27,268 nucleotides of DNA from positions 1 through 27,268 of the IMG/VR virus record IMGVR_UViG_3300023112_000079, one strand, 5' to 3'. The notes below the pieces were generated by a model. That model had not been told where the DNA came from. It was given only the letters and a program-made list of their open reading frames with translations, and did not search any database. This document shows, piece after piece, positions 1,033 to 16,450 of this stretch (the first letter of the stretch is position 1; every line of letters begins with the position of its first letter). A program made the translations under genes and the position numbers. The DNA is from a virus.

Positions 1033-1070
1033 AAACCCGCTATCATTCATTTGATAGCGGGTTTTCTTTT
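1033..1070 (+). terminator. intrinsic terminator
   Basis: A perfect 13-bp stem, 1033-1045 with 1052-1064, has a 6-nt TTCATT loop and runs into TTTTCTTTT. It closes the possible RNA upstream and separates the first two genes from the 1248-3603 gene group. Confidence 0.9.
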
Positions 1071-1093
1071 GCCTAGAGGAAAGTTTCTTTTAT

Positions 1094-1120
1094 CTAAAGG
1101 TTGCCTAAAGGTTGCCTAAT
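1094..1120 (+). repeat. tandem 11-bp repeat upstream of a promoter
   Basis: CTAAAGGTTGC occurs at 1094-1104 and again at 1105-1115, followed by a partial third copy (CTAATGG). The 11-bp period puts the copies on about the same helix face, just upstream of the promoter candidate at 1131-1159. An operator or activator site is possible. Confidence 0.5.
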
Positions 1121-5598: not shown

Positions 5599-6756
5599 TT
5601 GAAAGAAATTAATATGGATAATATTGTTGTACAAAAAAGAGATGGGCAGGAAACAGGTTTCAATGAGGATGTGATTGCATTTGCGATTGATAACGCGGCT
5701 GCGGATGTAGGTGAGCCTCTTGATGCACAAGAGCTTGCTGTAAAGGTGGTTAAACGTTTAAATGAAGGTGTTGTTAGTGTAGAGGAAATTCAGGATGCTT
5801 GTGTGCATGTGCTTATGGTGAGTAAGTATAAGAAAACAGCTGAAGCTTATATTAAGCACCGCAACGATAGAGATCAAGTACGGGAAGGTAAATCCCCTCT
5901 TTTAGAGGACATTGCAAGCTTCTTAGATGGAAGTGATGATGCTCACGCAAAAGAGAATAGTAACAAGAGTTCAGAACAGATAGTGGCACATCGAGACGCT
6001 GTTGCAGGTATACTAAGTAAGCATATGATGAAAACGATCTTTGATAAAGATGTCTATGAAGCGCACAAGAAAGGGGCAATACACGCACACGATGGCGACT
6101 ACCTAATCAGCAAAGGTATCCACAATTGCGGGGTTTATGACTTTGAGTATATGTTAGCTAACGGTGTTAAACTCGGTGACGTAGAAATTGAAACCCCTAA
6201 GTCTGTAGGTACTGCAGCAAATGTCTCTTGTCAGGTGCTTAGTAAAATATCTGGTTCTTCGTATGGTGGTCAGTCTATGCACGAATTTGACCAAGTGATG
6301 AAACCTTATGTAGAAAAGAGCTTGAAGAAGATTAAACTTGTTCAAGCTAAGTACAACTTACCAGAAGAATTTGTAGAAGAAACTTTAAGAAAAGACATCT
6401 ATGATGCTTGTCAAACATTTATTTATCAAATCCAAACCGTTACATCAAACAACGGGCAATCAAGTTTCGCAGCGATCAGCTTATCCTTATCAACAGATCC
6501 TATCTGTAAAATGGTTAAGGAGGAGTACCTAAAATGTCATATGCAAGGTATTGGGGAAGATCATAAAGTACCTATCTTCCCGAAAGTACTTTACTTTGTA
6601 GAGGAAGGTGTGAACCTTAACAAAGAGGATGTGAATTATTCCGAATTCCGTCTTGCATTGGAGTGTTCCTCTAAGATGATGTACCCTGACCTAATCATGG
6701 CACCTAATAATAGAAAAATGACTGGAGGTTCTGAGAATGTTGTAACATCAATGGGT
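5599..6756 (+). CDS. nrdD: anaerobic ribonucleoside-triphosphate reductase, exon 1
   Basis: Encodes residues 1-386 of class III ribonucleotide reductase, which makes dNTPs from NTPs without oxygen using a glycyl radical formed by NrdG. Residues about 8-95 form an ATP-cone regulatory domain (VQKRDGQETGFNEDVIAFAI...KYKKTAEAYIKHRN). HAHDGDYLISKGIHNCGVYD puts Cys177 where NrdD has its first active-site Cys. TTG 5599 is used because AAGGGG lies 7 nt upstream; ATG 5614 is an alternative. Coding ends ...VTSMG at 6756, and the apparent TGA stop at 6757 is the first base triplet of a group I intron. With exon 2 the protein is 698 aa, about the usual size. Confidence 0.93.
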
Positions 6757-7077
6757 TGAGATAGTAGCCCATTTAAAACGATATTAACGAGATTGGTAAT
6801 CTTGGGTAGTTAGAAATAACTGCTAACGGTGTATCCTCACAGCGATGTGATAGGTTTGGAAACAAATTGGAACGTAAGAGAGGCTAAGAGTTATTAACTT
6901 AAGCTAATACCGTGGCGAATGATTAAATTCATGGCTGTAGAGACTAATGTGTAATGAGTGTAGCACAGGTAAGGATGATTTAACCACATTCTGAAACGTA
7001 TCGCTCCTTAACAGGTAATGCTGATGGGGAAAATTTAGTCCGACACACTGAGAGAAGTGAAAGCTTCATGTGTGTAG
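6757..7077 (+). ncRNA. group I intron in nrdD, no internal ORF
   Basis: The 321-nt insert is bounded by textbook group I signals. P1 forms between exon AATGGGT (6750-6756, with the last A of the preceding codon) and GCCCATT (6767-6773), with the U-G pair at the 5' splice site. P7 forms between GACTA in the R element (6942-6946) and TAGTC in the S element (7036-7040). The intron ends in G7077, followed by TGC; 7078-7080 can pair with 6764-6766 as a short P10. Splicing restores a perfect NrdD frame (M-G-C-R-S-F). There is no ORF inside, so mobility would need an outside nuclease. Confidence 0.9.
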
Positions 7078-8016
7078 TGCAGAAGTTTTGTACCGAAGTA
7101 TATTGAAAATGGTAAAGAGAAAATGACAGCTAGGTTTAATCTTGGCGTAGCTACTGTATCTATTCCTTATGCTGCATTGACAGCGAAGCGAGATAATACA
7201 GATTTTTATGAGGAACTTGGTAAATTGTGTGACTTAGCTTATAGAGCAAACATGACACGTATAGACCGTATGAAAGGAACTAAAGCAAAGGTAAGTCCTA
7301 TCCTTTGGCAATATGGGGCTTTAGCAACATTAGAGCCAGAAGATACTATTGACCACTTATTCTACAATGGTAATGCAACAGCTTCTATCGGGTATGCAGG
7401 TTTATATGAAGCGCTTGAGATCCTCGGAAATACAAGTAAGGAACTTGGTATGGAGGTACTTAACTGCATAAAAGACAAAACCGTTGAGTACACAAAAGAA
7501 ACAAACATCACGTTCAGCCCCTATGGATCTCCATTAGAATCGGGTTGCCTACGTTTTGCAGAGTGTTTGAAGAAAGAGTTTAAAGATTTGTGGGATTTTG
7601 ATAGAAAATTCGTAACTAACTCTTTCCACAGACCAGTGTTCTCTGATATTGACATGTTAGAGAAATTCGATTGGGAAGGTGGTTACTATATGATTAGTTC
7701 AGGTGGTAATGTTAATAATATAGAATTACCTAATATGGCTAATAATCTGGATGGGTTTGAAGGTGTTGTCAAAGCTGCTTACGATAAAGTTAATTACCTT
7801 ATCTGTAATCAGCCCATAGACAAATGCTTTGAATGTGGATTCAGCGGCGAATTTGAAGCGCTTGAAGATGGATATCACTGCCCTGATTGTGGCAATAATA
7901 ATCCAGACACTGCAAACTGTACTCGAAGAGTTAGTGGTTATATACACGATGCGCTTGCTCGTCCCGCTAATGATGGGAAGTATGAGGAACAAAGTGTACG
8001 GTTTAAGAATGTTTAA
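7078..8016 (+). CDS. nrdD: anaerobic ribonucleoside-triphosphate reductase, exon 2
   Basis: Encodes residues 387-698. The first codon is Cys387 of MGCRSF. Its spacing from Cys177 (210 residues) matches the two active-site Cys of known NrdD proteins (79 and 290 in T4, 175 and 392 in E. coli, from memory), so Cys387 is probably the thiyl-radical Cys. A zinc site follows: CFEC (636-639) and CPDC (654-657). The glycyl-radical motif is RRVSGY with Gly673, followed by ARPANDGKYEE. An internal ATG at 7123 could be mistaken for a gene start, but it lies within exon 2. Confidence 0.92.
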   Translation, partial: CRSFVPKYIENGKEKMTARFNLGVATVSIPYAALTAKRDNTDFYEELGKLCDLAYRANMTRIDRMKGTKAKVSPILWQYGALATLEPEDTIDHLFYNGNATASIGYAGLYEALEILGNTSKELGMEVLNCIKDKTVEYTKETNITFSPYGSPLESGCLRFAECLKKEFKDLWDFDRKFVTNSFHRPVFSDIDMLEKFDWEGGYYMISSGGNVNNIELPNMANNLDGFEGVVKAAYDKVNYLICNQPIDKCFECGFSGEFEALEDGYHCPDCGNNNPDTANCTRRVSGYIHDALARPANDGKYEEQSVRFKNV

Positions 8017-11436: not shown

Positions 11437-11443
11437 TCTGACA

Positions 11444-11578
11444 ATGGTGTTTGAACAACACACCACCTCAGAACGCCGTCAGCAGCCCTCTCAAGAGGAT
11501 AAAGCTCTTGGCAATACAATAACCTCACTTGAGAGGAAAGATGGTGATTGTTGGTGTAAGGAGCTTGATAAAGTTTAA
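11444..11578 (+). CDS. possible small protein, 44 aa
   Basis: ATG 11444 opens a 44-codon frame (MVFEQHTTSERRQQPSQEDK...) in the stretch before the tRNA promoter. The GGAG is 13 nt away, farther than usual. Its RQQPS codons (11477-11492) are an exact 16-bp repeat also found at 16462-16477, in the frame of another tiny ORF. The same DNA can form stems (CCTC-TCAA-GAGG, and CCTCTCAAG with a distant CTTGAGAGG), so an RNA role is an alternative. Confidence 0.35.
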   Translation: MVFEQHTTSERRQQPSQEDKALGNTITSLERKDGDCWCKELDKV

Positions 11579-11597
11579 TATAATACTTAAAATACTC

Positions 11598-11626
11598 TTG
11601 TCAAAAGTGTTTATTCTTGATACAAT
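11598..11626 (+). promoter_or_regulatory. strong promoter for the tRNA and giant ncRNA transcript
   Basis: TTGTCA (11598-11603), a 17-bp spacer and TACAAT (11621-11626). The predicted start near 11633 is about 9 nt before the first tRNA. No other terminator is evident before 12780, so one transcript of about 1.2 kb is expected. Confidence 0.75.
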
Positions 11627-11641
11627 AGATACTTACAATAG

Positions 11642-11714
11642 GCAGGTATGATGTAACAGGATAGCATCCAAGTCTTCTAAACTTGTTGTTAGAGTTCAAA
11701 TCTCTATACCTGTA
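11642..11714 (+). tRNA. tRNA-Arg (TCT)
   Basis: The full cloverleaf folds by hand. The acceptor is GCAGGTA with TACCTGT (G-U at the end). The D stem is ATGT/GCAT with GG in the loop. The anticodon stem CAAGT/ACTTG closes loop CTTCTAA (anticodon TCT). The T stem is TAGAG/CTCTA with loop TTCAAAT. CCA is not encoded: the discriminator A is followed by C and then the next tRNA. It reads AGA, frequent in these AT-rich genes but rare in many gammaproteobacterial hosts. Confidence 0.9.
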
Positions 11715-11715
11715 C

Positions 11716-11792
11716 GGCCCTTTAGCTTAATTGGTTAAAGCAGCAAGCTCATAACTTGAAGAGTCTCGGATCATTTCCGAGAAGGGCCACCA
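11716..11792 (+). tRNA. tRNA with CAT anticodon, probably tRNA-Ile2
   Basis: The acceptor is GGCCCTT/AAGGGCC with an encoded ACCA end. The D stem is GCTT/AAGC with TTGGTT in the loop, the anticodon loop is CTCATAA, and the T stem is CTCGG/CCGAG with an atypical ATCATTT loop. The acceptor and D-arm sequence (GGCCCxTTAGCTxA) resemble E. coli tRNA-Ile2, whose CAT is modified to lysidine to read AUA, more than elongator tRNA-Met (GGCTACG). It is not initiator-like. It starts one base after the end of tRNA-Arg. Confidence 0.88.
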
Positions 11793-12779
11793 ATGTTCGT
11801 GCGAGTTATTAGTTATCTCCACGTTAAATGTTAAAAACTTCCAAACTAAACTTGACCAACTTTAGCACCCAAACACATTAAGATGTGGGTGAAACGGTTT
11901 CTACAAACACCTTTAAAATGGTGAACACCTACTTAGGAGGAATACCCTCTTTCTGAAAGAGTAGGTTATAACTATAACCGAATGGTATCCCCTTCATGGA
12001 AACATGGAGCAGCACGTAGTGGTGCGGAGGTTGTCTAAGGAGCAATCTTGAAGAATACACACTTTACAGCAACACGACTTTCCCTTCTCCCACGCTGGCA
12101 TTACGACCACTGGGGTTGGGCGCTGTGAAGTGTAATGAGAATCTTTGAGATAAGGTTCAAAAAGTCATTGATGGTAAAGGTACTACCTGCGGTTAAGACT
12201 TTAAAAAAGAGAAACTCGTACCCGTTCTGTTAGTTGACGACTATACATAAACACTACGTGAAGGTGTTAAATACAATAAGATCATAGAAGTGAAACTCGC
12301 ATAACAGTTAAATCTGTCAGAAATTCTATGTGTGGTAAGGTTGCGAGCACCTAGTTCAATTCTAGGTATTGTGTTCTATAGAAAAGTCCGTATGCGTCCT
12401 CCTCTCAACGATGACAGCGTATTAAGGTGATAAAAACTCTACCGTCCCTTATTGAGCAATACACGTTAAAATGTGCATGGCGGTAAGGTTGAGTTCTTTC
12501 CTATTACAGGAAATATAAGCTGTAACAAGGTTGTTGTCCGAGACATGTAAAAGTTTTAATTACGGCTTTTTACTGAAGCTAGTTGTCTGTTTCTCTCCTG
12601 TCTAAGACTGTTTATCTTTGTCACAGTGATATTCTTCAACATAAAGCATATGTAGAGCTAGTAGAGATTCCTCTGAGACAGTTAATGTTGTTTCAAGCCT
12701 CTACATTAGCAAACTTGGATTGGGTACAGGAACGGCTTCCTACCAATCTACCTTTTAATTAGGTTAGCCGATATATAGT
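11793..12779 (+). ncRNA. giant structured ncRNA, GOLLD/ROOL-like candidate
   Basis: About 990 nt without a protein gene, between tRNAs and a terminator, with many mutually consistent stems. CACAT/ATGTG with a TAAG loop (11874-11887). CACC/GGTG (11908-11923). CTTCATG/CATGGAG with a GAAA tetraloop (11992-12009). A 12-bp stem 12059-12070/12123-12134 with one G-U. CATAGAA/TTCTATG (12283/12324) crossing CTCGCA/TGCGAG (12296/12342) as a pseudoknot. A T-arm-like hairpin CCTAG-TTCAATT-CTAGG (12350-12366). AACTC-TACCG with CGGTA-AGGTT-GAGTT (12435-12444/12481-12495). TGTAGAG/CTCTACA (12651/12699). Size, phage context and position directly behind tRNAs match GOLLD RNA (about 800-1000 nt) or ROOL. The family cannot be confirmed by eye. 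Confidence 0.65.
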
Positions 12780-12815
12780 AACCCCTGATCATTAATTTGG
12801 TCAGGGGTTTTCTTT
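12780..12815 (+). terminator. intrinsic terminator of the tRNA-ncRNA unit
   Basis: AACCCCTGA (12780-12788) pairs with TCAGGGGTT (12801-12809), extended by a T-G and a C-G pair around an 8-nt loop, then TTTTCTTTT. The sequence after it (AAAGTTTCTTT at 12826) is also found after the terminator at 1033-1070. Confidence 0.9.
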
Positions 12816-12873
12816 TATCTGAAATAAAGTTTCTTTAACCTAAAACTAAATTTAAAATAACTTACATTCTTTG

Positions 12874-12901
12874 TTGACTCTGTATGTGAGAAGGGTATAG
12901 T
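12874..12901 (+). promoter_or_regulatory. sigma70-like promoter for cca
   Basis: TTGACT (12874-12879), a 16-bp spacer and TATAGT (12896-12901). ATTGAAAATGATTA starts 7 nt after the -10 (12908), nearly identical to the start region at 19665 and like 10247. Confidence 0.7.
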
Positions 12902-12931
12902 AGGCGTATTGAAAATGATTAAGGAGAAATT

Positions 12932-14239
12932 ATGACTATTAAATACTATCTTGTTGGCGGTGCTTGTAGAGACATCTTAATGGGAAATACCCCAAAAGAT
13001 TATGACTTTGTTGTAGTTGGTGCAAAAGTCTCTGACTTTGAGTATCTGGAACAAGTTGGTAAGGATTTCCCTGTGTTTTTAGAACCTACCTATAAGTGGG
13101 AATTAGCATTAGCACGTACTGAACGTAAAACTGGTAGGGGTTATAACGGATTTTCTTGTGATGTTAATAATGTTACTTTGGAAGAAGATTTATCAAGACG
13201 TGATCTAACCTTGAACTCAATCGCTATTGAAGTGGATTGGGAAACCTCATTACTATTAGGAGAACCTGTAACTGTGGGGACATGGATTGATCCTTTCAGT
13301 GGACGACAAGATATCAAAGATAAGGTCTTGTCACATACAACAGATGCTTTTGCAGAAGACCCTGTTAGAGTGCTTCGTGTTGCACGTTTTCTTTCAAGAT
13401 TTGGTGATGAATGGGAAGTTGACTACTACACATGTAAACTCATAGCTAATATGTTTATGTATGGAGCACTAAAAGAACTTGTTCCCGAAAGAATTTGGCT
13501 TGAGGTTAGTAAATCCCTCTCAGGAAAAACACCTAGTATATTCTTTGAATTTTTAAGATCAGTTGATATGTTTGAAGAGGTTGAAAGTATGAGAGACACT
13601 TCTCAACGATTAGCCCATCATCCAGAAGGAGATGTATGGAAACATTGCCAGCTTGTAATGGACTACGCAGCCAAAACTTACAATGATCCTGAAATAACTT
13701 TTGCAAGTTTTACTCATGATTTTGGCAAAAGTATATCTCACGAGAAATACAGTAACAGCCACGGGCACGAGAAAGAAGGTTTACAACCTATCAACGATTT
13801 CTGTGACAGGTATAAAGTTCCTAACCGTTATCGTGAACTTGCCCTATTAGTTTGTGAAAATCATACACGAATTCACGGATGTATGTCTCGTGGGTCAAAC
13901 GATTGGATGCGCCCAAAATCGATTTACAAGCTCTTCGAATCAACATCAGCACTTACTAAACCTGAACGCTTCGAGAAGATACTAAAAGCTTGTATTGCCG
14001 ATGCAAGAGGTCGTGGAGCTACACCTGAACAAATTAGGGCGTTTGAAGCAAAGCCTTACCCACAAGCTGAGTATTTACGTGAATGCCTACAAGCTGTAAT
14101 CGCTTTAGACACCAAAGCAATTTCTTCTGAACTACTTGCAAAAGGTAAGAAAGGGTGTATGATAGGCGAACAAATAAGAGTTGCACGTATCGATGCTATT
14201 CGTACTGTAACAAATAAATGGAAACTTAAGGAGAAATAA
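12932..14239 (+). CDS. cca: CCA-adding enzyme (tRNA nucleotidyltransferase)
   Basis: Adds or repairs the 3' CCA of tRNAs. The 435-aa protein aligns along its length with E. coli Cca: YLVGGACRD (6-14), catalytic carboxylates in DYDFVVVG (Asp23, Asp25), GKDFPVFL, ALARTERK (59-66), RRDLTLNSIA (89-98), EDPVRVLRVARF and PERIWLE. It also keeps the gammaproteobacterial C-terminal HD domain: HHPEGDVWKH (229-238) and THDFGK (His262-Asp263). A small insertion lies around 101-118. AAGGAGAAATT precedes the ATG. It is next to the tRNA cluster, where tRNA-Arg lacks CCA, which explains its use. This domain order suggests a gammaproteobacterial origin. Confidence 0.95.
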   Translation: MTIKYYLVGGACRDILMGNTPKDYDFVVVGAKVSDFEYLEQVGKDFPVFLEPTYKWELALARTERKTGRGYNGFSCDVNNVTLEEDLSRRDLTLNSIAIEVDWETSLLLGEPVTVGTWIDPFSGRQDIKDKVLSHTTDAFAEDPVRVLRVARFLSRFGDEWEVDYYTCKLIANMFMYGALKELVPERIWLEVSKSLSGKTPSIFFEFLRSVDMFEEVESMRDTSQRLAHHPEGDVWKHCQLVMDYAAKTYNDPEITFASFTHDFGKSISHEKYSNSHGHEKEGLQPINDFCDRYKVPNRYRELALLVCENHTRIHGCMSRGSNDWMRPKSIYKLFESTSALTKPERFEKILKACIADARGRGATPEQIRAFEAKPYPQAEYLRECLQAVIALDTKAISSELLAKGKKGCMIGEQIRVARIDAIRTVTNKWKLKEK

Positions 14240-15334: not shown

Positions 15335-16450
15335 ATGAAAAAGCAGTCACTACAACAATTGGCAAACAAAATCGAGAAAGCTTCTAAATCTTTACGTCAT
15401 GATAACGGATTATATTCTGCAAGTGCAGGAGAACATTATATATCCTTTGTGTGGTTAAGAGACCTGTATATGCAAACAGTAGATATTCCTAAAGAAGATT
15501 ACTTACAATCTTGGTCAACGTTCTTGGATTATGCTGTTACATGTGAAGATAAATATAAAAAGTTCACAACTATTATCGAAGAAGGTAGATCTGCAAAACC
15601 ATTTCATATTCGTTGGTGTACAAAAACAAATGATGAGATTGAACATGAATGGGGGCATCAACAAAATGACTCATGGGGTATGGCATTAATGGCAATAGCT
15701 GAGGAAGGGGAGGCGCTTTTACAAAATGAAGATTATAAGGAAGTTGTTAAGCTCATCCTACTAGCCTTAAATTCCTCTGAGTTTTGGACTGCGCAAGATT
15801 GTGGTGCATGGGAGGAAAACTTTGAACACCGTCAATCATCTATTGCATGTGCAGCTAGTGGTGTTTATGACATTGCACCTTATTACCCTGAGTTGTCAGA
15901 AATGACAAACCACATGATTGAAGAGTCAAAATGGGTCATTGAAGATTTCGGTACAAATGAAACACCAACTCGAAGTGCAGACCTTGCTCAATTGCATGGT
16001 GTGTGGTTTGGTGTGCCACGAAAGGTTATGTCGCTTAATCAAGGTAAGAAGATTATCCGTAATGTTGAGAAAAACCTTTTACGAAGAAACGGTGTTGCAC
16101 GTTACAAAAGAGATGAGTTTTATAATATCAATTTAAGGCTTACTCTTGATAAATACAATGGAGTGTTCAACCCTCAAGCAGAAGGTGAAATTGTTGGAGG
16201 TGAAGCCGAGTGGGTATTTGGCTTTCCAACCTTAATGCTTGCTCGTAAATCTTGTGGTATGGAAGTTCCTGAATATTACATTAAGCGTATGAAGGATATT
16301 GCTTTGCACAATAATGGTGTGATCCCTGAGTTGTACTATGCTAAAACTAATATTTGCAACGATAACCGCCCTCTCGGGTGGTCTTGTAACCTGTTTCGCA
16401 TTGTAATGACTGAATATCTCGAATTTGGCAAAATTACTCCACTTGCTTAA
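15335..16450 (+). CDS. GH15-like (glucoamylase / phosphorylase-kinase fold) protein
   Basis: The 371-aa protein looks like an (alpha/alpha)6-barrel glycosidase. ISFVWLRDLYMQ (36-47) matches the family's YxWxRD motif, GHQQNDSWGMAL (107-118) the QxDxxG motif, and CGAWEE (156-161) the general-acid LWEE motif, followed by HRQSSIACAASGV. GEAEWVFGFPTLMLA (about 289-303) could supply the second carboxylate. No signal peptide is seen, so it should act in the cytoplasm, perhaps on glycogen-type alpha-glucans. The true substrate is unknown. It is slightly shorter than typical GH15 enzymes. AAAGGGGAACAC precedes the ATG. Confidence 0.7.
   Translation: MKKQSLQQLANKIEKASKSLRHDNGLYSASAGEHYISFVWLRDLYMQTVDIPKEDYLQSWSTFLDYAVTCEDKYKKFTTIIEEGRSAKPFHIRWCTKTNDEIEHEWGHQQNDSWGMALMAIAEEGEALLQNEDYKEVVKLILLALNSSEFWTAQDCGAWEENFEHRQSSIACAASGVYDIAPYYPELSEMTNHMIEESKWVIEDFGTNETPTRSADLAQLHGVWFGVPRKVMSLNQGKKIIRNVEKNLLRRNGVARYKRDEFYNINLRLTLDKYNGVFNPQAEGEIVGGEAEWVFGFPTLMLARKSCGMEVPEYYIKRMKDIALHNNGVIPELYYAKTNICNDNRPLGWSCNLFRIVMTEYLEFGKITPLA

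What the first reader, a model, noticed from the sequence alone, without database searches (positions are those of the whole stretch)
11598..12815. Phage-encoded giant ncRNA of GOLLD/ROOL type behind two tRNAs
Seen: a strong promoter, two tRNAs, then about 990 nt with no protein gene but many stable stems, a GAAA tetraloop, a crossing pseudoknot (12283/12324 with 12296/12342), a T-arm-like hairpin and a final terminator. The module GGTAAGGTTG occurs at 12333 and 12482, each closing a stem, suggesting internal repetition. Known: GOLLD and ROOL RNAs are very large, live in phages and prophages, and often sit beside tRNAs; recent structures show them as multimeric RNA cages. Inference: this is a member or a new relative of that class, possibly in a gammaproteobacterial phage.
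Basis: partly seen in the sequence, partly recalled or inferred. Interest (0 to 1): 0.9.

Follow-up and report, generated by a model that had tools for sequence, protein, structure and literature searches.

The report
Mosaic giant phage RNA beside tRNAs
Behind two tRNA genes this bacterial virus carries a roughly 1,000-letter RNA that codes for no protein and appears to be pieced together from small folded RNA parts that other phages keep in their introns and between their tRNA genes; it belongs with a little-studied set of giant phage RNAs, one of which is the most abundant transcript of the cholera phage ICP1.

Summary
In detail: two tRNAs (Arg, Met) are followed by about 1.02 kb without a protein gene, ending in a strong terminator. 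The locus is nevertheless a real structured RNA. Three profiles built without the window hit it on the + strand: the P9-P9.2 end of phage group I introns (11982-12054, E 1e-13) without the intron core; module B (12520-12565, E 2e-8), which sits in giant RNAs of Shewanella and Vibrio phages and in T4- and T5-like phages; and module C (12714-12773, E 1e-9), a covarying motif with a likely pseudoknot, found in phage tRNA arrays. Rfam finds no GOLLD, ROOL, tmRNA or intron. Phages related by their CCA-adding enzyme carry 1-2 kb noncoding regions beside tRNAs built from modules in varying order; one domain covaries strongly (16 of 32 pairs). Vibrio phage ICP1's most abundant transcript, a published ~800-nt ncRNA of unknown function, shares modules with that set. 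I read the window RNA as a mosaic giant phage ncRNA, analogous to but not a member of GOLLD/ROOL. It lacks the main Vibrio domain; its function is only inferred.

The parts
11598..11626 (+). sigma70-like promoter (TTGTCA-17-TACAAT, extended -10) before the tRNAs
   Evidence: consensus scan only; not above chance by count
11642..11715 (+). tRNA-Arg (anticodon TCT), CCA not encoded
   Evidence: ARAGORN, Rfam 56.6 bits; sequence
11716..11792 (+). tRNA-Met (anticodon CAT), CCA encoded
   Evidence: ARAGORN, Rfam 62.6 bits; sequence
11793..12815 (+). body of the putative giant noncoding RNA (about 1.02 kb), from the tRNA-Met 3' end to the terminator; both ends inferred
   Evidence: ORF-free on both strands; three independent RNA modules inside, same strand
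11982..12054 (+). module A: like the P9-P9.1-P9.2 3' end of phage group I introns; intron core not detected upstream
   Evidence: nhmmer profile of phage introns, positions 124-196 of 201 only, 44.4 bits, E 1.4e-13; blastn 77% to intron 3' ends; context of other copies
12349..12367 (+). T-arm-like hairpin with UUCAAUU loop
   Evidence: sequence; listed as stem-loop; not tested for covariation
12509..12569 (+). module B, shared with noncoding regions of Shewanella, Vibrio, Aeromonas and T4-like phages
   Evidence: 93% over 42 nt to phage KASIA, E 2e-8 in 2.3 Gb; profile without the window E 1.9e-8
12714..12773 (+). module C: helix P1, hairpin P1a with CGGC loop, hairpin P2, then UUAGCCGA whose GCCG can pair with the loop
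   Evidence: CM 71 bits with the window among its training rows; profile without the window E 1.4e-9; P1 paired in all sequences with compensatory changes in 6 of 6 pairs
12780..12815 (+). intrinsic terminator (12-bp stem 12780-12809, T-rich tail)
   Evidence: a similar terminator and tail recurs at 1034-1098
12932..14239 (+). CCA-adding tRNA nucleotidyltransferase gene next to the RNA (context, not part of it)
   Evidence: Pfam PolyA_pol head domain; 57% identity to the Shewanella phage 1/4 enzyme

Best explanation
The region most likely encodes a large structured noncoding RNA of about 1 kb, transcribed with the two upstream tRNAs from one promoter and ended by the terminator at 12780-12815. 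Cleavage at the tRNA-Met 3' end would release it (inferred). It is a mosaic: a group I intron P9-P9.2 domain without the catalytic core, module B shared with giant RNAs of related and unrelated phages, and module C with a likely pseudoknot before the terminator, joined by sequence of its own. It belongs with a set of tRNA-adjacent 1-2 kb phage RNAs in marine vibrio and shewanella phages, built from modules in varying order; the ICP1 ncRNA is the member shown to be transcribed. Most likely mode of action (inferred, weakly supported): an abundant, compactly folded, perhaps self-assembling structural RNA made during infection and tied to the phage's own tRNA supply (tRNAs plus CCA-adding enzyme), working like GOLLD/ROOL rather than coding, splicing or acting as a cis leader.
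For: Three profiles that exclude the window hit this 1-kb stretch on the + strand as their only significant hits in 27 kb: A E 1.4e-13, B 1.9e-8, C 1.4e-9. Module C keeps P1 with compensatory changes in 6 of 6 pairs; CM members score 67-82 bits and the next match 12.6. Relatives of the adjacent CCA enzyme carry ORF-poor gaps beside tRNAs that share 50-600 nt modules in different order. In one such domain 16 of 32 pairs have double compensatory changes (0 of 500 shuffles). The ICP1 ncRNA, published as that phage's most abundant transcript (PMC7567579), shares modules with R16F, eugene, 11895-B1, Shewanella 1/4 and G001.
Against: No transcript data for this phage. Outside modules A-C (about 200 of 1020 nt) no homologue of the window RNA was found, so most of it has no covariation test. 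The best-supported Vibrio domain (model R2) is absent from the window, so the link to ICP1 runs through intermediates sharing module B, not directly. Fold energies are unremarkable. Nothing tests assembly, abundance or a tRNA-related role.
Confidence: 0.62

Rival explanations
1. The region is a tRNA-array spacer with several small independent RNAs (module B, module C and others), cut out separately by tRNA-processing enzymes, rather than one giant RNA.
For: Modules B and C occur singly between tRNAs in T5-like AhSzw-1 and in T-even STP4-a and CkP1, and C in large tRNA arrays. Phage T4 makes small stable RNAs C and D in its tRNA cluster (annotation).
Against: Here the modules lie in one 1-kb stretch with no tRNA between them and one terminator; the ICP1 relative is seen as one ~800-nt transcript.
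Confidence: 0.2
2. The 5' third is the relic of a group I intron and the rest is decaying noncoding sequence without function.
For: Module A matches intron 3' ends. Rfam can miss divergent phage introns: a likely one in the window's own nrdD is not found.
Against: The profile's core positions 1-123 give no hit and no interrupted gene flanks the region (upstream is an intact tRNA); modules B and C are conserved, C with covariation.
Confidence: 0.1
3. It is a highly divergent GOLLD or ROOL RNA that the Rfam models miss.
For: Same setting: phage, tRNA neighbourhood, 0.8-1 kb, T-loop-like hairpin. GOLLD has a poorly conserved 5' half (PMC12286853).
Against: No hit at E <= 5 in a permissive scan of this stretch nor in 23 relatives; the conserved 3' part here is module C, which gave no Rfam match in any of its carriers scanned.
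Confidence: 0.05

Closest known systems
ICP1 ~800-nt ncRNA (Vibrio phage ICP1, gap gp139-gp140; PMC7567579)
   Same: Large ORF-less phage RNA with its own terminator, part of a pool of modules also found in Shewanella 1/4, G001, R16F, eugene and 11895-B1; the window shares module B with Shewanella 1/4 and KASIA.
   Different: ICP1 has no tRNAs; blastn finds no shared segment with the window apart from the terminator tail.
GOLLD RNA (RF02032)
   Same: Giant, phage-encoded, near tRNAs, function unknown (PMC12286853).
   Different: No Rfam match.
ROOL RNA (RF03087)
   Same: Large phage/prophage RNA near tRNA islands (PMC12286853).
   Different: No Rfam match.
Phage group I introns (RF00028)
   Same: Window 11982-12054 resembles their P9-P9.2 3' end.
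   Different: No core, no flanking exons, no Rfam hit.

Membership tests
GOLLD (RF02032) | match to the Rfam covariance model | tested here: not met
   the search had no positive control
GOLLD (RF02032) | phage-encoded, near tRNAs, 800 nt or more | tested here: met
   shared by several phage RNAs, so not diagnostic
GOLLD (RF02032) | 14-mer RNA cage | not testable with these tools
   needs purified RNA and cryo-EM
ROOL (RF03087) | match to the Rfam covariance model | tested here: not met
   the search had no positive control
ROOL (RF03087) | multimeric RNA cage | not testable with these tools
   needs purified RNA and cryo-EM
Group I intron | catalytic core (P3-P8, P7 with G-binding site) | tested here: not met
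   no RF00028 hit at E <= 10; intron profile matches only positions 124-196. Rfam also missed a likely divergent intron in nrdD, so this is not absolute
Group I intron | interrupts a gene (flanking exons) | tested here: not met
   upstream neighbour is an intact tRNA-Met, downstream a terminator
tmRNA | ARAGORN/Rfam tmRNA match | tested here: not met
Mosaic tRNA-adjacent giant RNAs of Vibrio/Shewanella phages | large ORF-free region beside tRNAs in a phage of the same CCA-enzyme group | tested here: met
Mosaic tRNA-adjacent giant RNAs of Vibrio/Shewanella phages | module B present | tested here: met
Vibrio subgroup with domain E (model R2) | domain E present | tested here: not met
   so not filed in that subgroup

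The most novel reading that the evidence does not exclude
Giant phage RNAs evolve by shuffling autonomous RNA domains: the 3' domain of a self-splicing intron and pseudoknotted modules from tRNA-array spacers were joined into one large functional RNA, giving a new class of GOLLD/ROOL-like phage RNAs that includes the top transcript of ICP1.
Probability: 0.45. Interest if true: 0.85.

Novelty: new variant of a known kind. Interest (0 to 1): 0.7.

Why it matters
Giant phage RNAs such as GOLLD and ROOL form cages but have no known role. A further, unrelated set beside tRNAs, some in cultured phages, would show that phages made such RNAs repeatedly. ICP1, Shewanella 1/4 and several vibrio phages are cultured, so deletion and structure experiments are possible now. 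The modules suggest that large RNAs can grow by domain shuffling, including capture of a ribozyme's outer domain, and module C is a covarying phage RNA motif that has no Rfam family in release 15.

Tried and rejected
GOLLD, ROOL, OLE, tmRNA, RNase P: no Rfam hit. Group I intron: 3' domain only. Terminator similarity 12771-12830 to phages 1.063.O and 1.084.O: rejected as RNA homology because the same terminator tail recurs at window 1034-1098 and a scan for it gave only terminators. T4 stable RNAs C and D: no similarity to the window. Module B structure: alternative foldings, alignment too small to decide. Domain E in the window: absent. Module C pattern in genome contigs: 63 hits, about what chance gives by my own estimate; only the Proteus copy has the structure, and 1 of 296 genomes of its order, the Proteus itself, has it. 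Exact pattern for the Vibrio D-domain core: no IMG/VR hit. The Proteus stretch in plasmids: no hit. A first folding script timed out.

Full report
Setting. The window is an IMG/VR-type virus record of 27,268 bases. Its CCA-adding enzyme (12932-14239) is closest to those of one IMG/VR contig (59%, L019/G001), Shewanella phages 1/4 and 1/40 (57%) and Vibrio phages such as 11895-B1, 496E54-1 and eugene 12A10.

Observation. tRNA-Arg(TCT) and tRNA-Met(CAT) at 11642-11792 are real. From 11437 to 12931 no ORF of 60 aa or more exists on either strand, the longest such gap in the window. A terminator with a 12-bp stem lies at 12780-12809. The crossing helices, T-arm-like hairpin and repeated 10-mer exist as described, but the crossing helices and the repeat are at chance level in shuffles, and fold energies are mostly ordinary.

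Known families. Rfam 15 at gathering scores gives only the two tRNAs. The permissive scan to E = 5 gives no GOLLD, ROOL, OLE, tmRNA, RNase P or intron. The GOLLD and ROOL models give nothing in the window or in 23 related records (both warn that no positive control rang).

Module A, 11982-12054. blastn hits cluster at the 3' ends of phage group I introns. A profile built from such introns hits the window at 11982-12054 with 44.4 bits, E 1.4e-13, using profile positions 124-196 of 201 only; nothing matches the core part 1-123. Six of seven further copies in IMG/VR sit directly behind intron-like sequence with the ATAGTC-type P7 strand. So the window holds an intron-like P9-P9.2 domain without a detectable core. 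Caution: Rfam also misses a probable divergent intron in this phage's own nrdD.

Module B, 12509-12569. 93% over 42 nt to a noncoding gap between terminase and portal genes of Shewanella phage KASIA (E 2e-8 in 2.3 Gb), 80% to the noncoding stretch behind tRNA-Gly and tRNA-Arg in Shewanella phages 1/4 and 1/40. A profile without the window hits it at E 1.9e-8 and also finds the module in F100, 1.187.O, 1.063.O, RYC, K470, 496E54-1, AhSzw-1 and e11/2 (most of these are training rows). In AhSzw-1 it lies between tRNAs. Its secondary structure is not settled.

Module C, 12714-12773. It was first seen by blastn in the tRNA clusters of T-even phages STP4-a and CkP1. A pattern scan added IMG/VR contigs and a Proteus alimentorum locus. 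P1 is paired in 48 of 48 cells of eight sequences and all six P1 pairs have changes on both sides. Caveat: members found by pattern were recognised partly by their P1 helix; the window, STP4-a and CkP1 were not, and the window and CkP1 already differ by compensatory changes. Three members lie among tRNA genes (L061, L062, L065). The invariant CGGC loop can pair with GCCG in UUAGCCGA; this pairing never varies, so it is not tested (the pseudoknot columns entered were off by two and should be ignored). A profile without the window hits it at E 1.4e-9. No Rfam family matched it in its carriers L005, L007, L009, L012, L016, L061, L062, L065 or L086.

The wider set. Noncoding gaps beside tRNAs in related phages share 50-600 nt segments in different order. 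Vibrio phage 1.187.O even has the same order tRNA-Arg, tRNA-Met, then 1.6 kb without a gene. One 130-nt domain shared by eight Vibrio phages has 16 of 32 pairs with double compensatory changes, 0 of 500 shuffles reaching that, and far above slid controls. Its model also finds G001 at 27 bits, but nothing significant in the window. Vibrio phage ICP1's most abundant transcript, an ~800-nt ncRNA whose authors compared it with GOLLD and ROOL in length (PMC7567579), shares segments with R16F, eugene, 11895-B1, Shewanella 1/4 and G001. I found no statement in the papers searched that connects these RNAs; that library is open-access only.

Reading. Shown: a tRNA-adjacent noncoding stretch holding three independently conserved RNA modules on one strand. 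Supported: mosaic relation to giant RNAs of related phages, one of them transcribed at high level. Inferred: one transcript, release at the tRNA-Met end, abundance, structural or self-assembling role. The adjacent CCA-adding enzyme, and the lack of an encoded CCA in tRNA-Arg, suggest but do not show a tie to tRNA supply.

Noticed in passing
window 5599-8016: nrdD is split by about 365 nt (near 6757-7120) with a P7-like GACTAA..TTAGTC, at about the same codon as the Vequintavirus nrdD intron; likely a divergent group I intron that Rfam misses at E <= 1.
   Followed up: partly
window 1034-1098 and 12780-12844: The terminator and its tail recur at 75% identity within the window and in related phages: a repeated terminator-associated element.
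   Followed up: partly
L086 6674-6733 (-): Module C in a short noncoding stretch of Proteus alimentorum, just before a terminator, on a contig with TraC- and TrbI-like conjugation genes.
   Followed up: partly
L059 584-627, 976-1059, 1451-1537: tRNA-array spacers of T5-like Aeromonas phage AhSzw-1 hold three different modules shared with giant RNAs of other phages.
   Followed up: partly
L005 2890-3204 and L016 2890-3190: STP4-a and CkP1 share an unannotated ~290-nt noncoding stretch, 82% identical, inside their tRNA clusters; module C is part of it.
   Followed up: no
window 11437-11597: Noncoding stretch upstream of the promoter with a long CCTCTCAAG..CTTGAGAGG stem (z about -2.7); role unknown.
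   Followed up: no
window 15335-16450: Phage gene with a weak glycosyl hydrolase family 15 match (E 2e-5).
   Followed up: no
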